This document shows, piece after piece, positions 4,064 through 14,446 of a DNA stretch of 64,000 nt; positions within the stretch are counted from its first letter, which is position 1; every line of letters starts with the position of its first letter. Source of the DNA: Pseudomonas sp. N040 (GTDB taxonomy: Bacteria > Pseudomonadota > Gammaproteobacteria > Pseudomonadales > Pseudomonadaceae); contig NZ_JADOBE010000004.1 in the NCBI RefSeq assembly GCF_015637705.1, forward strand, positions 62,001 to 126,000. Direction: 5' to 3'. The translations under genes were made by a program, and so were the position numbers. Below the pieces are notes generated by a model that was not told the DNA's origin, ran no database searches, and saw only the letters and a program-made list of their open reading frames with translations.

Positions 4064-6283
<2,220 letters not shown>

Positions 6284-6383
6284 AGCCTGACACGGCGGTT
6301 GGCAAGCCCGAAGCCGCCACGGATAATGCACGGCTATTCCACCGCATCACGCCCGCCTGTTCTGCCGGCCTCAAGAGCACACC

Positions 6384-8123
6384 ATGAAAGACAGCATTCG
6401 CCACCTGATCCAGCAAGCCCTGACCCGCCTGACTGCCGAGGGCGTGCTGCCCGCAGGGCTGAGCCCGGTGATCCAGGTGGAGAACACCAAGGACAAGAGC
6501 AACGGCGACTTCGCCAGCAACATCGCCCTGATGCTGGCCAAGCCGGCCGGGCTGAAGCCGCGCGAACTGGCCGAGAAACTGGTCGCCGCGCTGCCGGCCG
6601 ACAGCCAGGTCAGCAAGGTGGAAATCGCCGGCCCGGGCTTTCTCAATTTCTTCCAGAACAGCGACGCCCTGGCCCAGCGCCTGGAAGCCGCACTGGCCGA
6701 CCCCCGCCTCGGCGTGCGCAAGAACGGTGTGGCACAGCGCGTGGTGGTCGACTTGTCCTCGCCGAACCTGGCCAAGGAAATGCACGTCGGCCACCTGCGT
6801 TCGACCATCATCGGTGACGGCGTGGCCCGCGTGCTGGAGTTCCTTGGCGACAGCGTGATCCGGCAGAACCATGTCGGCGACTGGGGCACCCAGTTCGGCA
6901 TGCTGCTGGCCTACCTGGAAGAGAACCCGGCTGCCGCCGAGAGCGGGCTGGCCGATCTCGAGCAGTTCTACCGCGCCGCCAAGCAGCGCTTCGACGAGTC
7001 GGAAAACTTTGCCGTGCGCGCCCGCGAACTGGTGGTCCAGCTGCAGGCCGGCGATGCCAACTGCCTGCGGCTGTGGCAGCGCTTCAACGACATTTCCCTG
7101 TCCCACTGCCAGAAGGTCTACGACCGCCTCGGCGTGAAACTGTCGATGGCCGACGTCAAGGGTGAAAGTGCCTACAACGACCAACTGGCTGACATCGTCG
7201 AAGCCCTGCGCGACAAGGGCCTGCTCAGCGAGAGCGACGGCGCCCAGTGCGTGTTCATGGACGAATTCAAGAACGCCGAAGGCAACCCGCTGCCGGTGAT
7301 CGTGCAGAAAGCCGGCGGCGGCTACCTGTACGCCACCACCGACCTGGCCGCGATGCGCTACCGCAGCCAGGTACTGCACGCCGACCGCGCGCTGTACTTC
7401 GTCGACCAGCGCCAGGCCCTGCACTTCCAGATGGTCTTCGAGGTGGCGCGCCGCGCCGGCTTCGTGCATGCCGGCATGCAGCTCGAACACATGGGCTTCG
7501 GCACCATGAACGGCGCCGACGGCCGCCCGTTCAAGACCCGCGACGGCGGCACGGTAAAACTGGTCGACCTGCTCGACGAGGCCGAAGAACGCGCCTACGC
7601 GCTGGTCAAGAGCAAGAATCCGCAACTCGACGACAGCGAACTGCGCCAGATCGGCCACGCCGTCGGCATCGGCGCGGTGAAGTACGCCGACCTGTCGAAG
7701 CACCGCAGCAGCGACTACAGCTTCAACTTCGAGCAGATGCTCAGCTTCGAGGGCAACACCGCGCCCTACCTGCTCTACGCCTACACCCGCGTGGCCAGCG
7801 TGTTCCGCAAGCTGGGCAAGGACTTCGCCGAGGTCGGCGGCCAGATCCAGCTCGGGGCCGCCCAGGAAATCGACCTGGCCACCAGGCTCGCGCAGTTCGG
7901 CGAGGTGCTCAACAACGTCGCCGACAAGGGCACCCCGCACACCCTGTGCAGCTACCTCTACGACCTGGCCGGGCTGTTTTCCAGCTTCTATGAGCACTGC
8001 CCGATCCTCGCTGCCGAGGACGAAAGCGTGCGCAACAGCCGCCTGCGCCTGGCCGCGCTGACCGGCCGCACCCTCAAGCAGGGTCTGGAACTCCTCGGCC
8101 TGCAGCCGCTGGAGCGCATGTAA
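6384..8123 (+). CDS. argS: Arginyl-tRNA synthetase
   Basis: Class I synthetase charging tRNA-Arg. It is 579 aa with the N-terminal Add-1 domain, the HIGH-equivalent HVGH within [15 protein letters not shown] near residue 134, and the [17 protein letters not shown] loop that replaces a canonical KMSKS, as in many proteobacterial ArgRS. The C-terminal DALR anticodon-binding domain ends in GLQPLERM. Next to priA with a 100-bp gap; its TAA stop abuts the GTG start of the following gene with no spacing, implying coupling. Confidence 0.98.
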
Positions 8124-8801
8124 GTGGCAACCCGAAAAAAAACCGCCACGCCCAGGCGCGGCGCCAGCCGCTACCAGCCGCCACCCCGCAAACCGGTACC
8201 CGGCTGGGTGTGGATGGCCTGCGGATTACTGGTAGGCGGCTTCATCGTATTTCTCATGCAGCTGCAGCCCGGCCGCGAAGAGATCAAGCGCGACAAGGCC
8301 GAACAAGCCGTCAGCCGCCAGCCGAAAACCGAAGTGTCTGCGGCGAAAAAGTCCGAGCCGCAGAAACCGAAGTACGACTTCTACACCCTGCTGCCGGAGT
8401 CGGAAGTCATAGTCCCGCCCGACGCTCTGACCGCGGAGAAGCCGGCGAGCAAGCCGCTGACGCCTGCCGAAGCCGCCAAGCTTGACGCCGCCCGCGCGGA
8501 AGCCCTGCTCAACGGGCAGACTCCGCCAGCCCCGCCCACGGTGGCCAAGGCGCCGGTGACCACCGAGTTCTTCCTGCAGGCCGGCTCGTTCCGCAAGCGC
8601 GAAGACGCCGACAAGGTCAGGGCCCAGATCATCATGCTCGGACAGAACGTCCAGGTTGAGTCCGGCACCGTGCGCGAGGAAGTCTGGCATCGTGTGCTGG
8701 TGGGTCCGTTCGCCAATCGCGAACAGCTCGCCCAGGCGCAGAAATCCCTGGCCGCCAGCGGTTTCGGCAACCTGCTGTTACAGCAGCGCCAGTCGCGCTA
8801 G
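8124..8801 (+). CDS. FtsN-like SPOR-domain membrane protein
   Basis: A bitopic inner-membrane protein likely recruited to the septum by denuded peptidoglycan. It has a short basic cytoplasmic tail (MATRKKTATPRRG), one membrane segment at about residues 28-46 (VWMACGLLVGGFIVFLM), an Ala/Pro/Lys-rich linker, and a C-terminal SPOR domain from about 148 (FFLQAGSFRKREDADKVRAQ) to the end. At 225 aa it is shorter than enteric FtsN. Its GTG start follows the argS stop directly. Whether it is the essential FtsN orthologue or an accessory SPOR protein cannot be decided from sequence alone. Confidence 0.88.
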   Translation: MATRKKTATPRRGASRYQPPPRKPVPGWVWMACGLLVGGFIVFLMQLQPGREEIKRDKAEQAVSRQPKTEVSAAKKSEPQKPKYDFYTLLPESEVIVPPDALTAEKPASKPLTPAEAAKLDAARAEALLNGQTPPAPPTVAKAPVTTEFFLQAGSFRKREDADKVRAQIIMLGQNVQVESGTVREEVWHRVLVGPFANREQLAQAQKSLAASGFGNLLLQQRQSR

Positions 8802-8822
8802 CAGGGTTTTTCCGCGTCACGG

Positions 8823-8848
8823 TTGAAAAGCCGCCGGCATCGCCCCAT
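8823..8848 (+). promoter_or_regulatory. Sigma-32 (RpoH) heat-shock promoter of hslVU
   Basis: TTGAAA at 8823-8828, a 14-bp spacer, and CCCCATCT from 8843 match the sigma-32 consensus (CTTGAAA, 11-16 bp, CCCCATNT) at nearly every position. Expected transcription start is around 8855, leaving a leader of roughly 40 nt before the hslV start. Confidence 0.85.
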
Positions 8849-8897
8849 CTCTTCCTGCACAAGGGCCACCCGGCCCCGCAGCGCGGAGCAGCTTCTC

Positions 8898-9428
8898 TTG
8901 ACCACCATTGTTTCAGTTCGCCGCAACGGCAAAGTCGTCATGGGCGGGGACGGCCAGGTTTCCCTTGGCAACACCATCATGAAAGGCAACGCGAAGAAAG
9001 TCCGCCGCCTTTACCACGGCGAAGTGCTGGCCGGCTTTGCCGGTGCCACCGCCGATGCCTTCACGCTGTTCGAACGCTTCGAGGGGCAACTGGAAAAGCA
9101 TCAGGGCCATCTGGTGCGCGCGGCGGTCGAACTGGCCAAGGACTGGCGTACCGATCGCTCGCTGAGCCGCCTGGAAGCCATGCTGGCGGTAGCCAACAAG
9201 GATGCCTCGCTGATCATCACCGGCAACGGCGACGTCGTCGAACCCGAGCTGGGCCTGATCGCCATGGGCTCCGGCGGCGGCTTCGCCCAGGCCGCAGCCA
9301 TGGCCCTGCTGCAGAAGACCGACCTGTCGGCCCGCGAAATCACCGAAACCGCGCTGAATATCGCCGGCTCCATCTGTGTCTTCACCAACCAGAACCTGAC
9401 CATTGAAGAGCAGGACTGCGCCGAGTAA
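8898..9428 (+). CDS. hslV: HslV, ATP-dependent protease proteolytic subunit
   Basis: Threonine protease of the HslVU (ClpQY) complex degrading misfolded and regulatory proteins in the cytosol. I choose the TTG at 8898, not the longer upstream frame from 8823, because the mature enzyme must begin with [10 protein letters not shown]: Thr after the initiator Met is the nucleophile. This gives 176 aa, the family norm. [12 protein letters not shown] and the [13 protein letters not shown] segment are characteristic. A GCGGAG sequence precedes the start. It is followed by hslU with a 27-bp gap and preceded by a sigma-32 promoter. Confidence 0.97.
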
Positions 9429-9455: not shown

Positions 9456-10796
9456 ATGCCCATGACCCCCCGCGAGATCGTGCACGAACTCAGCCGCCAC
9501 ATCATCGGCCAGGATGACGCCAAGCGCGCCGTGGCCATTGCCCTGCGCAACCGCTGGCGGCGCATGCAGCTGCCGGCCGAACTGCGCCAGGAAGTCACGC
9601 CGAAGAACATCCTGATGATCGGCCCGACCGGCGTCGGCAAGACCGAAATTGCCCGCCGCCTGGCCAAACTGGCGGGTGCCCCGTTCATCAAGGTGGAAGC
9701 CACCAAGTTCACCGAGGTCGGCTATGTCGGCCGCGATGTCGAGTCGATCATCCGTGACCTTGCCGATGCCGCGATCAAGCTGCTGCGCGAGGAAGAGATG
9801 CAGCGCGTGCGCTTTCGCGCCGAAGATGCCGCCGAAGAGCGCATCCTCGACGCCCTGCTGCCGCCCGCTCGCCAGGGCTTTGCCGATGAGCCGGCGCGCC
9901 ATGAGGACAGCAATACCCGCCAGCTGTTCCGCAAGCGCCTGCGCGAAGGCCAGCTGAATGACAAGGAAATCGACATCGAAGTCGCTGACAGTCCGGTCGG
10001 GGTGGAAATCATGACGCCGCCGGGCATGGAAGAAATGACCAGCCAGCTGCAGAACCTGTTCTCCAGCATGGGCAAGGGCAAGAAGAAATCGCGCAAGCTC
10101 AAGGTGCAGGACGCGCTGAAGCTGGTGCGCGATGAAGAGGCCCTGCGCCTGGTCAATGAGGACGAGCTCAAGGCCAGGGCCCTCGAAGCCGTGGAGCAGA
10201 ACGGCATCGTGTTCATCGACGAAATCGACAAGGTCGCCAAGCGCGGCAACGTCGGCGGCGCCGATGTCTCCCGCGAGGGCGTGCAACGCGACCTGCTGCC
10301 ACTGATCGAAGGCTGCACGGTGAACACCAAGCTGGGCATGGTCAAGACCGACCACATCCTGTTCATCGCCTCCGGGGCCTTCCACCTGAGCAAGCCCAGC
10401 GACCTGGTGCCGGAACTGCAGGGCCGCCTGCCGATCCGGGTCGAGCTCAAGGCGCTCACCCCCAATGACTTCAAGCGCATCCTCAGCGAGCCGCACGCCT
10501 CGCTCACCGAGCAATACAGCGCGCTGCTGGCCACCGAGGGCATGCTGATCGAGTTCGCCGAAAGCGGCATCCAGCGCATTGCCGAGATTGCCTGGCAGGT
10601 CAACGAGAAGACCGAGAACATCGGGGCGCGACGCCTGCACACCCTGCTGGAGCGCTTGCTCGAAGAAGTCTCCTTCAGTGCTGGCGACCTGGCGAGCCAG
10701 CAGAATGGCATCCCGCTGCTGATCGATGCCAGCTACGTCAACAGTCATCTGGGCGAACTCGCCATGGATGAAGATCTCTCGCGCTACATCCTCTAG
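9456..10796 (+). CDS. hslU: HslU, ATPase/unfoldase subunit of HslVU
   Basis: AAA+ unfoldase that feeds substrates to HslV. It is 446 aa, with [17 protein letters not shown] at the N terminus, Walker [10 protein letters not shown] near residue 57, the pore motif GYVGRDVES, a variable I-domain (about 110-240), Walker [10 protein letters not shown] near 252, and the C-terminal sensor-2 region [18 protein letters not shown]. The C-terminal end DEDLSRYIL is the conserved tail that inserts into HslV. Co-transcribed with hslV. Confidence 0.98.
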
Positions 10797-10852
10797 GCAG
10801 ATCGGCACAGGGTGGGCAACCGCTCTGCGCCTGCGAAAGACAGGCTCCAGCC

Positions 10853-11224
10853 ATGCAGATCCCCAGTCAGATCAAGCTGCACAAGGCTTCCAGAACCCTG
10901 GAGTTGCGCTATGGCGACACCCGCTACAGTCTGAGCGCCGAATTCCTCCGCGTGCATTCGCCCTCCGCCGAAGTGCAGGGCCACGGCCAGCCGATCCTGC
11001 AGTACGGCAAACAGGAGGTGGCGCTGCTGAAGCTGGAGCCGGCGGGTAACTATGCGTTGAAACTGATCTTCGACGATGGCCATGACAGCGGCCTGTTCAC
11101 CTGGGACTACCTGTACCAACTGGCCACCCGCCAGGAACAGCTGTGGCGCGATTACCTGCAGGCGCTGCACGATGCCGGACGTACCCGCGACCCGGCGGCC
11201 AGCGTTGTCCGCCTGCTGCTCTAG
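10853..11224 (+). CDS. DUF971 (GBBH-like N-terminal domain) protein
   Basis: A 123-aa protein of the DUF971 family, which resembles the N-terminal domain of gamma-butyrobetaine hydroxylase. Diagnostic stretches are LRYGDTRYSLSAEFLRVHSPSAEV and LIFDDGHDSGLFTWDYLYQL. Function is unknown; stand-alone members have been linked to iron-sulfur or quinone biology only by context. In Pseudomonas this gene normally stands between hslU and phaC1; here it is followed after 100 bp by phaD. Confidence 0.88.
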   Translation: MQIPSQIKLHKASRTLELRYGDTRYSLSAEFLRVHSPSAEVQGHGQPILQYGKQEVALLKLEPAGNYALKLIFDDGHDSGLFTWDYLYQLATRQEQLWRDYLQALHDAGRTRDPAASVVRLLL

Positions 11225-11324
11225 GATCAGCTGCAAGCGCAATGCCCGCGCATGCGTTTGCTGCTGGCTGTAAGCCGCTGCCCACGCTATTGTCTGAACT
11301 CATTTTTTCAGCTCAGAGCAGGCC

Positions 11325-11939
11325 ATGAAGACCCGCGATCGCATTCTTGAATGCGCCCTTGAACTGTTCAACCGGCAGGGCGAGTCGAACGTAACGACAC
11401 TGGAAATTGCCAACGAACTCGAAATCAGCCCGGGCAACCTCTACTACCACTTCCACGGCAAAGAACCGCTGATCATGGAGTTGCTTGGCCGCTTCCAGGG
11501 CGAGATGGCCGCGCTGCTCGACCCGCCGGAAGACATCACGCTGGATGCCGAAGACTACTGGCTGTTCATCTCGCTGATCGTCGAGCATCTGGCCCACTAC
11601 CGCTTCCTGTTCCACGACCTGTCCAATCTGGCCAGCCGCCTGCCAAAGCTGGGCAAGGCCATTCGTGACTGGCTGAATGTACTCAAGCGCACCGAAGCCT
11701 CCATGCTGGCGCGACTGAAGGCCGAGGGCCGCCTGGAAAGTGACACCCCCGCGCTGGGCCAACTGGTCGAGCAGATCACCCTGACCCTGCTGTTCTCGCT
11801 GGATTACCAGCGCATCCTCGGCCGCCCCGGAGAGACCCGCCTGGTGGTGTTCCAGGTGATGATGCTGGTGATTCCGCACCTCACCCCGAACTCGCGCGCG
11901 GGGGCGGAAAAGCTGGCGCGGCACTTCCTGGAAAACTGA
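11325..11939 (+). CDS. phaD: PhaD, TetR-family regulator of PHA granule genes
   Basis: A TetR-type DNA-binding protein of 204 aa. The N-terminal HTH is about residues 5-50 (RDRILECALELFNRQG ... ISPGNLYYHFHGKEPLIMELL); the rest is a helical ligand-binding domain. The N terminus is close to my recollection of Pseudomonas PhaD. In other Pseudomonas it activates phaC1 and phaI promoters in response to a PHA-pathway metabolite. Here the phaC1-phaZ-phaC2 genes it should follow are missing, so its remaining nearby target would be phaI-phaF. It faces phaF across a shared terminator. Confidence 0.9.
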   Translation: MKTRDRILECALELFNRQGESNVTTLEIANELEISPGNLYYHFHGKEPLIMELLGRFQGEMAALLDPPEDITLDAEDYWLFISLIVEHLAHYRFLFHDLSNLASRLPKLGKAIRDWLNVLKRTEASMLARLKAEGRLESDTPALGQLVEQITLTLLFSLDYQRILGRPGETRLVVFQVMMLVIPHLTPNSRAGAEKLARHFLEN

Positions 11940-11945
11940 ACCGCG

Positions 11946-11988
11946 CGCAATAAAAAACGCCCGGCAATGCCGGGCGTTTTTTATTGCG
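11946..11988. terminator. Bidirectional terminator between phaD and phaF
   Basis: Perfect 20-bp stem with a 3-nt AAT loop; the core CGCCCGGC/GCCGGGCG is flanked by A6 on one side and T6 on the other, so it can terminate both phaD (plus) and phaF (minus) transcripts. Confidence 0.93.
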
Positions 11989-11994
11989 ACAGAC

Positions 11995-12699
11995 TCAGGA
12001 AGCTGCCGTTGGCGTCACTGCCGGAGCAACTGCCGGGGCCGCAGCAACTGGCTTGGCTGCGGCTTTCACCGGTGTCTTGGCCACTGGCTTGGCTGCCGGC
12101 TTGGCTGCTGGTTTCGCTGCCGGTTTCGCTGCGGGCTTGACCACCGGTTTGGCTGCAGGCTTGGCTACCGGTTTGGCTGGCGCCTTGGCCGCCGGTTTGG
12201 CGGCGGGCTTGGCCGCAGCTCTTGCTGGAGCCTTGGCCGCTGGCTTGGCTGCCGCCGCCTTGACCGGTTTGACCGCAACACCCGTCAGTTTCTCTATCTG
12301 CCTGGCCAGACTTTCCACCTTGGCGTGCAGTTCCTTGACTTCGTTGCGGCTCGGTACGCCCATGCGGGAAATGGCGCTGTTCAGACGCTTGTCGAAGGCC
12401 TCTTCCAGCTCGTTCCACTTGCCAACCGCCTTGTCCTTGACCTCTTCAACCCTGGACTTGGCGCTGTCGACCGAAGTCTTGACCGCGTCAACCTGCTTGG
12501 TCACGCCGCTCTTGGCTTGCTTCTCGGCTTTCTCGCCGTCTTTTACCAGGCCGTCGAACAAGCTGTTGCCATCCTTGCTGACCTTGGAAAAGGCACCCAG
12601 GCCCGCCAGCCAGATTTGCCGCGAGTATTTCTCGATCTCGCTGATCCAGGAGTTCGCTTCTTTGCCAACTTTCTTCGCAACAGTTTTCTTGGTAACCAT
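11995..12699 (-). CDS. phaF: PhaF, PHA granule phasin with histone-like tail
   Basis: A bifunctional phasin of 234 aa. The N-terminal ~140 residues are the granule-binding phasin domain (SRQIWLAGLGAFSKV ... helical, heptad-rich to about 140). The C-terminal ~95 residues are AAKP/PAAK repeats, like histone H1, known in Pseudomonas PhaF to bind DNA non-specifically and help segregate granules. It lies 10 bp after phaI on the same strand. With no PHA synthase gene nearby, its substrate granule is uncertain; it may act on PHA made from an unlinked synthase, or on another inclusion. Confidence 0.95.
   Translation of the reverse strand: MVTKKTVAKKVGKEANSWISEIEKYSRQIWLAGLGAFSKVSKDGNSLFDGLVKDGEKAEKQAKSGVTKQVDAVKTSVDSAKSRVEEVKDKAVGKWNELEEAFDKRLNSAISRMGVPSRNEVKELHAKVESLARQIEKLTGVAVKPVKAAAAKPAAKAPARAAAKPAAKPAAKAPAKPVAKPAAKPVVKPAAKPAAKPAAKPAAKPVAKTPVKAAAKPVAAAPAVAPAVTPTAAS
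12045..12260 (-). repeat. Tandem codon repeats encoding the PhaF AAKP tail
   Basis: Imperfect tandem units of roughly 12-15 bp (GGCTTGGCTGCCGGTTT-like on the plus strand) recur across this interval and encode the AAKPAAKPxAKP array. Copy number of such arrays commonly varies between strains. Confidence 0.75.
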
Positions 12700-12709
12700 G
12701 TGGTTCTCC

Positions 12710-13132
12710 TTACTTATTACGCGAAACTTGCTCGAGCACGGCGCTCAGCTGATCGAGTTTAGCAGAGAGTGCCGCAACGTCCTGATGGGACGGAATGCCC
12801 AGGCGATTCAGCGCGCTGGCAACCCGGTTGTCGAAGCTCTGCTCGATCTTGTCCAACTGAACTTCGACTTTCTCTTTCACACCGGAAACGCTGCTCTTGA
12901 CCGAGTCGATCTGCGAGTTGGCCGCATCGACCTGCTGATGGACCAGCTTCTTGCCTTTCTTCTCGATGCCCTCGCCAGCCTTGACCAGATCCTTGAAGAT
13001 CTCGGCGCTGTCCTGGCCCGCCTTGCTGTATGCGCCGAGACCGGCCAGCCAGATTTTACGCGCGTAAGCCTTGACGTCGTCGAGGACCACACTCTGCGAT
13101 TCGGCTTGTTTCTTGACGGTTGCTTTGGCCAT
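12710..13132 (-). CDS. phaI: PhaI, small phasin
   Basis: A 140-aa phasin family protein homologous to the N-terminal domain of PhaF (shared KIWLAGLGAYSKAG and NRVASALNRLGIPSHQDV segments) but lacking the basic tail. It coats storage granules and influences their size. The ATG is preceded by GAGGTG. First gene of the phaI-phaF pair; a tandem 7-bp repeat lies just upstream (see findings). Confidence 0.95.
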   Translation of the reverse strand: MAKATVKKQAESQSVVLDDVKAYARKIWLAGLGAYSKAGQDSAEIFKDLVKAGEGIEKKGKKLVHQQVDAANSQIDSVKSSVSGVKEKVEVQLDKIEQSFDNRVASALNRLGIPSHQDVAALSAKLDQLSAVLEQVSRNK

Positions 13133-13234
13133 GGTACACCTCGGTTTTCAAGTGAACAGTGAACGCCATTTCAGGCTTTCGGCCAAGGTATAGAAGCGGT
13201 TTAGAAAAGACACACTAGAGGCCACGCGCCCGCC

Positions 13235-13513
13235 TCAGGCGCTCAGCGTTTCATCCAGGGTATTTTCGATTTCCTGCCTGATCGTGCGCTCGAACGCCAT
13301 CAGCAGAAAGCCCAGATCGAGCTCAACCCGCACCCGTTGCGGGTCGACGATGACGCGGCCGTGGGCGCCAACGCGCTTGAAGACCAGTACATCGTCATGC
13401 CAGCGATAGCGAATGTCGTACTTGTTGGAAAGGTGTTCCGCCAGCTCTTCGGCCATATTGCGGACGGCTTCGCGCCCCAGGCTGTGCTGACGTTCGACAA
13501 CAATATGCGACAT
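13235..13513 (-). CDS. PHA system family protein (PHA_gran_rgn)
   Basis: A 92-aa protein of the polyhydroxyalkanoic acid system family found beside pha genes. I start at MSHIVVERQHSLGREA because CGGAG lies 8 nt upstream; a longer frame would add seven residues. The body (KYDIRYRWHDDVLVFKRVGAHGRVIVDPQRVRVELDLGFLL) is the conserved core, possibly a START/Bet v1-like half-fold. Function unknown. It is transcribed in the same direction as phaI, about 100 bp upstream of it. Confidence 0.85.
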   Translation of the reverse strand: MSHIVVERQHSLGREAVRNMAEELAEHLSNKYDIRYRWHDDVLVFKRVGAHGRVIVDPQRVRVELDLGFLLMAFERTIRQEIENTLDETLSA

Positions 13514-13675
13514 GCAGAACTCCGACTGCGGCATTCAAGTGGCGTGACTATATCAGTTAAGTCCGGCAGCGGAATGCAGGAAGCGGCGAGACGCCGCGCG
13601 CGCCGTACAAAACTCCGAATCAACCAGCGCATAACCGGTTAGAATGACGCGCGAAATCAACCCGGTGAAATCAAC

Positions 13676-14446
13676 ATGAACGATCCGCGCAAAGCCCCCG
13701 AGCAGGAACCCACCACGCACTTCGGTTACCAGAACGTGCCGGAGAGCCAGAAGGCCGGCAAGGTGGCTGAAGTATTCCACTCGGTAGCGGCCAAGTACGA
13801 CCTGATGAACGACCTGATGTCTGCTGGCGTTCACCGCCTGTGGAAGCGCTTTACCATCGAGCTTTCCGGCGTCCGCCCGGGTAACCGGGTGCTCGACATC
13901 GCCGGCGGCACCGGCGACCTGACCCGCCAGTTCTCGCGCCTGGTGGGCGCCAGCGGCGAAGTGGTACTGGCCGACATCAATGCCTCGATGCTCAAGGTCG
14001 GGCGTGATCGCCTGCTGGACCTGGGCGTGGCCGGCAACGTGCGCTTTGTCCAGGCCGATGCGGAAAAGCTGCCGTTCCCCGACAACCACTTCGACGTGGT
14101 CACCATCGCCTTCGGGCTGCGCAACGTGACGCACAAGGAGGACGCCCTGCGCTCCATGCTGCGCGTGCTCAAACCGGGCGGACGCCTGCTGGTGCTGGAG
14201 TTTTCCAAGCCCGGCAACAGTCTGCTGTCCAAGGCCTATGACACCTACTCGTTCAGCCTGCTGCCGATGATGGGCAAGCTGATCACCAACGATGCCGACA
14301 GCTATCGCTACCTGGCCGAGTCGATCCGCATGCATCCGGACCAGGAAACGCTCAAGGGCATGATGGCTGACGCCGGCTTTGAACGCGTCACCTACCACAA
14401 CATGACTGGCGGCATTGTCGCCCTGCATCGCGGCATCAAGCCCTAG
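13676..14446 (+). CDS. ubiE: UbiE, demethylmenaquinone/2-polyprenyl-methoxybenzoquinol methyltransferase
   Basis: C-methylation step of ubiquinone (and menaquinone) synthesis using SAM. It is 256 aa: [32 protein letters not shown] is the family signature region, SAM motif I is [12 protein letters not shown] near residue 72, and motif II/III includes [12 protein letters not shown] and [14 protein letters not shown]. It starts the ubiE-ubiJ-ubiB run. Its TAG stop coincides with the left end of a 268-bp MITE that separates it from ubiJ. Confidence 0.97.

What the first reader, a model, noticed from the sequence alone, without database searches (positions are those of the whole stretch)
10797..13234. 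phaC1-phaZ-phaC2 missing between DUF971 and phaD, while regulator and phasins remain
In the Pseudomonas order I recall, hslU-DUF971 is followed by phaC1, phaZ, phaC2, phaD, phaF, phaI. Here DUF971 (stop at 11224) and phaD (start 11325) are separated by only 100 bp with no recognisable synthase or depolymerase remnant, but phaD, phaF, phaI and the PHA_gran_rgn gene are intact. Phasins kept without their synthase imply either a synthase elsewhere, a different granule client, or a second role such as nucleoid binding by PhaF.
Basis: partly seen in the sequence, partly recalled or inferred. Interest (0 to 1): 0.7.

Follow-up and report, generated by a model that had tools for sequence, protein, structure and literature searches.

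The report
PHA coat genes with swapped synthases
This Pseudomonas-like genome lacks the bioplastic-making genes phaC1-phaZ-phaC2 at the place where 79 of 79 compared relatives carry at least one such synthase, but keeps the regulator and coat proteins of the granule and holds three synthases of a different branch elsewhere, which likely make the polymer now, so that the regulator would be left controlling the coat alone.

Summary
DUF971 (stop 11224) and phaD (start 11325) are 100 bp apart, whereas 79 of 79 named relatives with both genes in view carry PhaC between them. The genome is not synthase-free: it holds three intact PhaC genes on other contigs. They are not relocated phaC1/phaC2: they fall in a separate clade with accessory Pseudomonas and Burkholderiales synthases, are 44-47% identical to the canonical PhaC1/PhaC2 compared, and have Val or Ile where 43 of 43 canonical rows have Leu484. 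Each sits beside its own depolymerase.

New here: a palindromic box, found before phaC1 (79 of 79) and phaI (72 of 76) in phaD-bearing relatives and absent from the matching loci of two phaD-less genomes, occurs twice in this genome as an exact pattern: before phaI-phaF and before a third phasin. None lies near the three synthases. So the likely picture is a swap of synthases, with PhaD left to run the coat only. A genuine orphan PhaF does exist in another genome of the genus (G001). Polymer type, PhaD binding and granules are untested.

The parts
9456..10796 (+). hslU, left flank gene
   Evidence: TIGR00390, 697.9 bits against a cut-off of 362
10853..11224 (+). DUF971 / GBBH-like_N protein, left border of the empty site
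   Evidence: PF06155, 92.9 bits
11225..11324 (+). 100-bp spacer where relatives carry phaC1 (with its promoter), phaZ and phaC2; no PhaD-type box and no readable scar
11325..11939 (+). phaD, TetR-type regulator; the stretch ISPGNLYYHFHGKEPLI of its DNA-binding domain equals the consensus of 80 relatives
   Evidence: PF13972 and PF00440; 78% to the best named relative
11948..11986. perfect 18-bp inverted repeat with A- and T-runs, read by eye as a two-way terminator between phaD and phaF (the scan did not report it)
   Evidence: sequence itself
11995..12699 (-). phaF, phasin with an Ala-Lys-Pro-rich tail
   Evidence: PF05597 143.7 bits, TIGR01837 147 bits
12710..13132 (-). phaI, phasin
   Evidence: PF05597 142.8 bits, TIGR01837 132.9 bits
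13201..13218 (-). PhaD-type box upstream of phaI, 68 bp from its start codon; one of two exact pattern matches in the genome
   Evidence: 25.6 bits against a matrix from 151 boxes of relatives, next best in the 64-kb window 4.5
13235..13534 (-). PHA_gran_rgn protein
   Evidence: PF09650 99.8 bits, TIGR02610 91.3 bits
13676..14446 (+). ubiE, right flank gene
   Evidence: ORF list; name assigned by me from the sequence; conserved next to the locus in relatives

Best explanation
This genome lacks phaC1-phaZ-phaC2 and the phaC1 control region between DUF971 and phaD while keeping phaD, phaF and phaI, and any polymer is likely made instead by three synthases of a separate branch encoded elsewhere, so that PhaD would now control only the granule coat. 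Shown: the empty junction; three intact PhaC genes and their separate clade; a depolymerase gene beside each; two exact PhaD-type boxes in the genome, both directly upstream of phasin genes, none near a synthase. Inferred: that the block was deleted; that the box is the PhaD operator; that the three enzymes are active and lean towards short-chain monomers; that PhaI, PhaF and the third phasin coat their granules, and that the basic tails of PhaF and the third phasin tie granules to DNA. Proposed working: signals from fatty-acid use act through PhaD to set the supply of coat and tether, while each synthase is switched on with its own catabolic cluster.
For: Empty junction against 79 of 79 relatives and none other spanning it among printed matches from 398 genus genomes. 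Three PhaC_N matches over cut-off in the own genome, catalytic Cys, Asp and His present in 3 of 3. Own clade SH-aLRT 100, canonical PhaC1/PhaC2 side 93, in a tree of 89 rows. Depolymerases: TIGR01849 at 453 and 467 bits (cut-off 301) directly after the C30 and C2 synthases; TIGR02240 at 304 bits (cut-off 251) plus a MaoC protein before the C12 synthase. The three PF05597 phasins are the only phasin matches, with no Phasin_2 and no PhaR-type PHB_acc_N match. Box before phaC1 in 79 of 79 and before phaI in 72 of 76 relatives, absent from the corresponding loci of two phaD-less genomes, G003 and G001. In the own genome two exact matches, before phaI and 73 bp before the third phasin's start; best score near the three synthases 7.3 bits, weakest training box 21.3. 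[quoted passage not shown] A class-II-like synthase with Ile484, PhaC2 of Cupriavidus pinatubonensis JMP134, makes short-chain polymer only (PMC4636328, abstract, section 14 and passages); own enzymes have Val, Val and Ile there, 43 of 43 canonical rows Leu.
Against: No expression, binding or polymer data. The count of two pattern matches is about what chance gives (my estimate about 1; the reversed control pattern gave 1); only their places are telling, and weaker boxes genome-wide were not scored. The matrix was trained on the same loci in which it then scores well. PhaF and PhaI of Pseudomonas sp. 61-3 bind only granules with more than 13 mol% C6-C12 monomers (PMC5658603, passage), which speaks against coating a pure short-chain polymer. 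The C12 depolymerase is of the TIGR02240 kind found in canonical loci, 4 of 34 rows of the wider clade do have Leu484, and no PhaB passes its cut-off (best 268.5 against 302.1), which weaken the short-chain reading. PhaD is more diverged from its relatives than any of them is (median 74% against a lowest relative median of 79%). No promoter was found for phaD in the spacer.
Confidence: 0.6

Rival explanations
1. PhaD still controls the synthases, through weaker or different sites or through another regulator, so nothing is uncoupled and only the gene positions changed.
For: Only exact pattern matches were sought genome-wide; a matrix scan was limited to the 64-kb window, 19 kb around each synthase and 18 kb around the third phasin. 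PhaF is reported to affect phaC1 expression (PMC9049629, passage).
Against: Nothing above 7.3 bits in the three 19-kb stretches, while both phasin boxes score 25.6 and 28.2.
Confidence: 0.2
2. The three synthases serve their own catabolic clusters and the old phasins do not coat their product; the phasins are kept for another client or for DNA binding.
For: G001, of the same genus, keeps PhaF beside DUF971 with no PhaC match. The 61-3 report of monomer-dependent binding.
Against: No other phasin family member was found in the genome. The own genome even has one phasin more than the 30 same-genus genomes with two, and phaI and phaF are not unusually diverged (ranks 5 from lowest among 75 and 29 relatives).
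Confidence: 0.14
3. Assembly or binning error: the 5-kb block exists but was lost from the assembly, or the synthases come from another organism.
Against: Completeness 99.85%, contamination 0.42%. The synthases lie on contigs of 207, 239 and 558 kb; the 558-kb contig also carries the third phasin with its box.
Confidence: 0.04
4. The ancestor of this lineage never had phaC1ZC2 at this place.
For: The lineage is isolated (best named PhaD relative 78%), and no scar is readable.
Against: 79 of 79 named relatives and 30 of 30 same-genus genomes with a PhaD orthologue have PhaC beside phaD.
Confidence: 0.02

Closest known systems
Pseudomonas medium-chain PHA locus phaC1ZC2D-phaIF (P. putida KT2440/KT2442; PMC9049629 and PMC5658603, passages)
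   Same: Same flanks, phaD, phaF, phaI and PHA_gran_rgn, and a PhaD-type box before phaI.
   Different: No phaC1, phaZ, phaC2 and no phaC1 promoter box; a third phasin with its own box on another contig.
PhaC2 cluster of Cupriavidus pinatubonensis JMP134 (PMC4636328: abstract, section 14 and passages)
   Same: Class-II-like synthase without a second synthase beside it, Ile or Val at site 484, PhaJ-like and PhaZ genes beside the synthase (C12 cluster).
   Different: There it accompanies a class I system in a Burkholderiales genome and has its own phaP; here three such synthases are the only PhaC found, in a pseudomonad with PhaD and PF05597 phasins. The JMP134 protein itself was not in my tree.
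Pseudomonads with an added PHB system: P. extremaustralis (PMC4041789, abstract and passages), P. pseudoalcaligenes CECT5344 (PMC4460949, passages)
   Same: A second PHA system besides the core one.
   Different: Those keep phaC1ZC2 and add a class I synthase with its own accessory genes; here the core block is absent and no Phasin_2 or PHB_acc_N match was found.
P. stutzeri A1501 (PMC4460949, passage)
   Same: A Pseudomonas reported to have only a synthase other than phaC1/phaC2.
   Different: Its synthase is class I. I did not examine whether it keeps phaD, phaF or phaI.

Membership tests
Canonical Pseudomonas mcl-PHA locus | phaC1-phaZ-phaC2 between DUF971 and phaD | tested here: not met
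   100-bp gap, no PhaC
Canonical Pseudomonas mcl-PHA locus | phaD followed by convergent phaF and phaI | tested here: met
Canonical Pseudomonas mcl-PHA locus | PhaD-type box before phaI | tested here: met
   window 13201-13218
Canonical Pseudomonas mcl-PHA locus | PhaD-type box before the synthase operon | tested here: not met
   none in the spacer nor in 19 kb around each of three phaC
Class II PHA synthase (TIGR01839) | score over the curated cut-off of 855.4 bits | tested here: not met
   679.6, 700.0 and 695.4 bits
Class II PHA synthase (TIGR01839) | catalytic Cys296, Asp451, His479 | tested here: met
   3 of 3
Class II PHA synthase (TIGR01839) | placement within the PhaC1/PhaC2 clade | tested here: not met
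   sister clade
Class I PHA synthase (TIGR01838) | score over the curated cut-off of 622.65 bits | tested here: not met
   490.6, 498.2 and 477.6 bits
Class-II-like short-chain synthase of the JMP134 PhaC2 kind | Ile or Val instead of Leu at site 484 | tested here: met
   Val, Val, Ile in the three; 43 of 43 canonical rows Leu
Class-II-like short-chain synthase of the JMP134 PhaC2 kind | same clade as JMP134 PhaC2 | not tested
Class-II-like short-chain synthase of the JMP134 PhaC2 kind | activity on 3-hydroxybutyryl-CoA and not on 3-hydroxyoctanoyl-CoA | not testable with these tools
   needs enzyme assays
PF05597 phasin (third phasin, L150:8705-9280) | score over the Pfam cut-off of 28.8 bits | tested here: met
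   43.1 bits; below the TIGR01837 cut-off (41 against 94.7)

The most novel reading that the evidence does not exclude
A pseudomonad lineage exchanged its whole polymerising module for three catabolism-linked synthases of a distinct, probably short-chain-leaning branch, yet kept the old regulator and brought a third phasin under it: PhaD has become a coat-only regulator, so granule surface and nucleoid tether are controlled apart from polymer synthesis. It is a natural uncoupling of the two halves of the carbonosome.
Probability: 0.45. Interest if true: 0.65.

Novelty: new variant of a known kind. Interest (0 to 1): 0.5.

Why it matters
PhaD is described as activating synthase and phasin operons together (PMC9049629, passages). 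A genome that keeps only the phasin half tests which half of the regulon matters, whether PhaI and PhaF can coat polymer from a distantly related synthase, and whether the class II label predicts monomer choice. The 18-bp box, strong in phaD-bearing loci and missing from the two phaD-less loci checked, gives a simple handle for mapping PhaD regulons across the genus. It also warns that an empty phaC1ZC2 site does not mean that a strain cannot make PHA.

Tried and rejected
Relocation of phaC1ZC2: rejected by the tree and by the median 50% identity of the C12 PhaZ to the relatives' PhaZ.

Class I system taken up whole, as in P. extremaustralis: rejected; the synthases score higher on the class II than on the class I model, and there is no Phasin_2 or PHB_acc_N match.

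A deletion scar: sought in the 100 bp by comparison with 79 relatives' phaC2-phaD and DUF971-phaC1 spacers. Best score 28 on both sides against 25.6 and 25.1 (sd 3.2 and 2.8) for shuffled sequence; the mean score was reached by 7 of 60 shuffles on the phaD side and 2 of 60 on the DUF971 side. No breakpoint can be named.

A sigma-70 promoter for phaD in the gap: none reported by the scan, so how phaD is now transcribed is open.

Decay of the orphaned genes: no clear sign. The lineage is diverged at hslU and DUF971 as well (lowest of 79 at both); phaI and phaF rank fifth from lowest (phaF compared in only 29 loci under the length filter), but phaD stands somewhat further out than hslU and DUF971 do. 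The relatives were chosen by PhaD similarity, which biases this comparison.

Sister species with the same junction: none among the printed matches of 398 genus genomes; PhaD relatives at 82-89% are known only as proteins on contigs that I could not open. How many genus members carry the alternative synthase clade: not obtained.

Novelty in print: the listings of searches of the held library showed no paper on phaD or phasins kept without phaC1ZC2; I read passages of five of the listed papers only, and subscription papers, including the one mapping PhaD binding, are not held, so this is weak.
Full report
What is there. The locus reads hslU (9456-10796), DUF971 (10853-11224), 100 bp, phaD (11325-11939), a perfect 18-bp inverted repeat (11948-11986, read by eye), then phaF and phaI on the other strand (11995-12699, 12710-13132), PHA_gran_rgn (13235-13534) and ubiE (13676-14446). 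The finding's coordinates and gene calls hold.

How unusual it is. A scan of species genomes with PhaD kept the best 80 of 511 stretches that encode a relative, all Pseudomonas or unclassified close kin by record title, so this is a sample of the nearest. Of the 79 that show both DUF971 and phaD, all 79 have PhaC between them: 78 with two PhaC matches and a gap of 4736-5500 bp, one (L075) with a single PhaC and 2074 bp. Of 35 other genomes of the same genus, 30 have a PhaD orthologue (E 1.8e-80 or better) and all 30 have a PhaC_N match on the same contig within 3 kb of it. Over 398 genomes of the genus, only the window's own printed match runs across DUF971 into phaD; weaker matches were not printed, but a junction-spanning match should score high.

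Synthases elsewhere. The own genome (3.67 Mb, 33 contigs, 99.85% complete, 0.42% contamination) has three PhaC_N matches over cut-off, on contigs C30, C12 and C2. All three have the Cys-Asp-His triad. NCBIfam places them nearer class II (680-700 bits) than class I (478-498), below both cut-offs. They are 44-47% identical to PhaC1 and PhaC2 of the two loci compared, L056 and L105, and 65-72% to each other. In a tree of 89 synthases they fall in a clade of 37 rows with accessory synthases of other pseudomonads and of Burkholderiales (SH-aLRT 100); the canonical PhaC1/PhaC2 side has 93 (quick method; the six outgroup rows have long branches and are unreliable in place). The C30 and C2 synthases are each other's nearest neighbours in that tree. 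Other pseudomonads carry this clade in addition to the core operon: Pseudomonas sp. 8AS has P0045 and locus L052 on a contig of the same length, 4261228 bases, and genome G027 has both kinds, its alternative synthase lying in a cluster largely collinear with the C12 cluster here at 78-88% nucleotide identity. So the alternative kind is an existing accessory of the genus, and the lineage need not have gained it after the loss.

Neighbours and likely substrate. On C30 and C2 a PHB-type depolymerase (TIGR01849, 453 and 467 bits against 301) follows the synthase; on C2 an acyl-CoA ligase and a thiolase precede it; on C12 a TIGR02240 depolymerase and a MaoC protein precede it, absent at that place from G027. 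The C12 cluster also has a BKACE beta-keto acid cleavage enzyme and CoA-transferase ORFs, an arrangement that would yield acetoacetyl-CoA (pathway knowledge, inferred). At site 484, reported to affect monomer choice, own enzymes have Val, Val and Ile and canonical rows Leu in 43 of 43; in the wider clade it is Val 16, Ile 14 and Leu 4 of 34. JMP134 PhaC2, class-II-like with Ile at 484, makes only short-chain polymer (PMC4636328: abstract, section 14 and passages). I therefore predict a lean to short-chain monomers. Against it: the TIGR02240 depolymerase on C12, no PhaB over cut-off (best 268.5 against 302.1), and the report that in Pseudomonas sp. 61-3 PhaF and PhaI bind only granules with more than 13 mol% C6-C12 units (PMC5658603, passage).

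The box. Comparing spacers showed an 18-bp palindrome, YTAG-N10-CTAR, before phaC1 in 79 of 79 loci and within 220 bp before phaI in 72 of 76; the four misses are L080, L091, L094 and L099. With a matrix from these 151 boxes, 80 of 80 phaD-bearing loci have a match over 20 bits (71 have two, 9 one), which is partly by construction; the independent part is that the corresponding loci of two same-genus genomes without phaD, G003 and G001, reach only -0.9 and 0.2 bits. That fits the described binding of PhaD to both promoter regions (PMC9049629, passages); I did not see the mapped operator. In the own genome the pattern YTAGNNNGNNNNTTCTAA occurs twice, with one match for the reversed control: at window 13201-13218 before phaI, and on C12 73 bp before the start of a 191-residue phasin with an Ala-Lys-Pro-rich tail. 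By my estimate about one match is expected by chance, so the count means little; that both lie directly upstream of the only two phasin transcription units found in a 3.67-Mb genome is the evidence. In 19 kb around each synthase nothing exceeds 7.3 bits, the weakest training box having 21.3. The PhaD stretch ISPGNLYYHFHGKEPLI equals the relatives' consensus.

The third phasin. Among 35 other genomes of the genus none has three PF05597 matches: 30 have two, G001 one, and G003, G020, G023 and G026 none.

Reading. The best account is a swap: the core polymerase-depolymerase block is gone, synthases of another branch remain, and PhaD with its phasins stays as the coat module. Expected working, inferred: PhaD responds to fatty-acid use and sets the amount of coat and of the DNA-binding phasins, while polymerisation follows the regulation of each catabolic cluster. 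A partial parallel in print: in JMP134 the class-II-like phaC was about 240-fold more transcribed than the class I gene on octanoate and was co-transcribed with its neighbours.

How such blocks can go. In L075 (Pseudomonas sp. ML96) the single synthase is a chimera: residues 1-336 are 80-100% identical to PhaC1 of eight relatives (26-69% to their PhaC2), residues 393-559 are 78-100% identical to their PhaC2 (40-76% to PhaC1), and phaZ between is gone. Recombination between the two tandem synthases is thus a visible route of loss at this locus; whether it was the first step in the window lineage is not known.

Limits. No wet data; a single genome, possibly from a metagenome; how phaD is transcribed without the phaC1 promoter is unknown; the deletion itself left no readable scar.

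Noticed in passing
L151 (genome G001): DUF971 6786-7157 (+), phaF 7257-8048 (-): A real orphan phasin: PhaF with a basic tail beside DUF971, one PF05597 match in the genome, no PhaC match, no PhaD orthologue and no PhaD-type box; the best case in hand for a second role of PhaF.
   Followed up: partly
L075:7243-8922 (Pseudomonas sp. ML96): A natural PhaC1/PhaC2 chimera of 559 residues, joined somewhere in residues 337-392, with phaZ lost; a ready-made domain swap.
   Followed up: partly
L132 (genome G003): DUF971 5505-5882, PhaC 5923-7680, PhaZ 7742-8590, PHA_gran_rgn 8603-8878 (-): The opposite loss: phaC1 and phaZ kept, while phaC2, phaD and both phasins are not found.
   Followed up: partly
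L150:8705-9280 (-), box 9354-9371 (-): A third phasin, not seen in 35 other genomes of the genus, with a PhaD-type box and phaI-like promoter sequence.
   Followed up: yes
L004:13301-16743: Two neighbouring, similar ORFs downstream of the C30 synthase; the first matches the homogentisate 1,2-dioxygenase N-terminal family, the second was not scanned.
   Followed up: no
Upstream of phaC1 in relatives, e.g. L049 and L070 after DUF971: Besides the box, a conserved stretch resembling a sigma-54 promoter (TGGCA...TGCA; the consensus is recalled, not from a call) precedes phaC1 in relatives and is absent from the window's 100-bp spacer.
   Followed up: no
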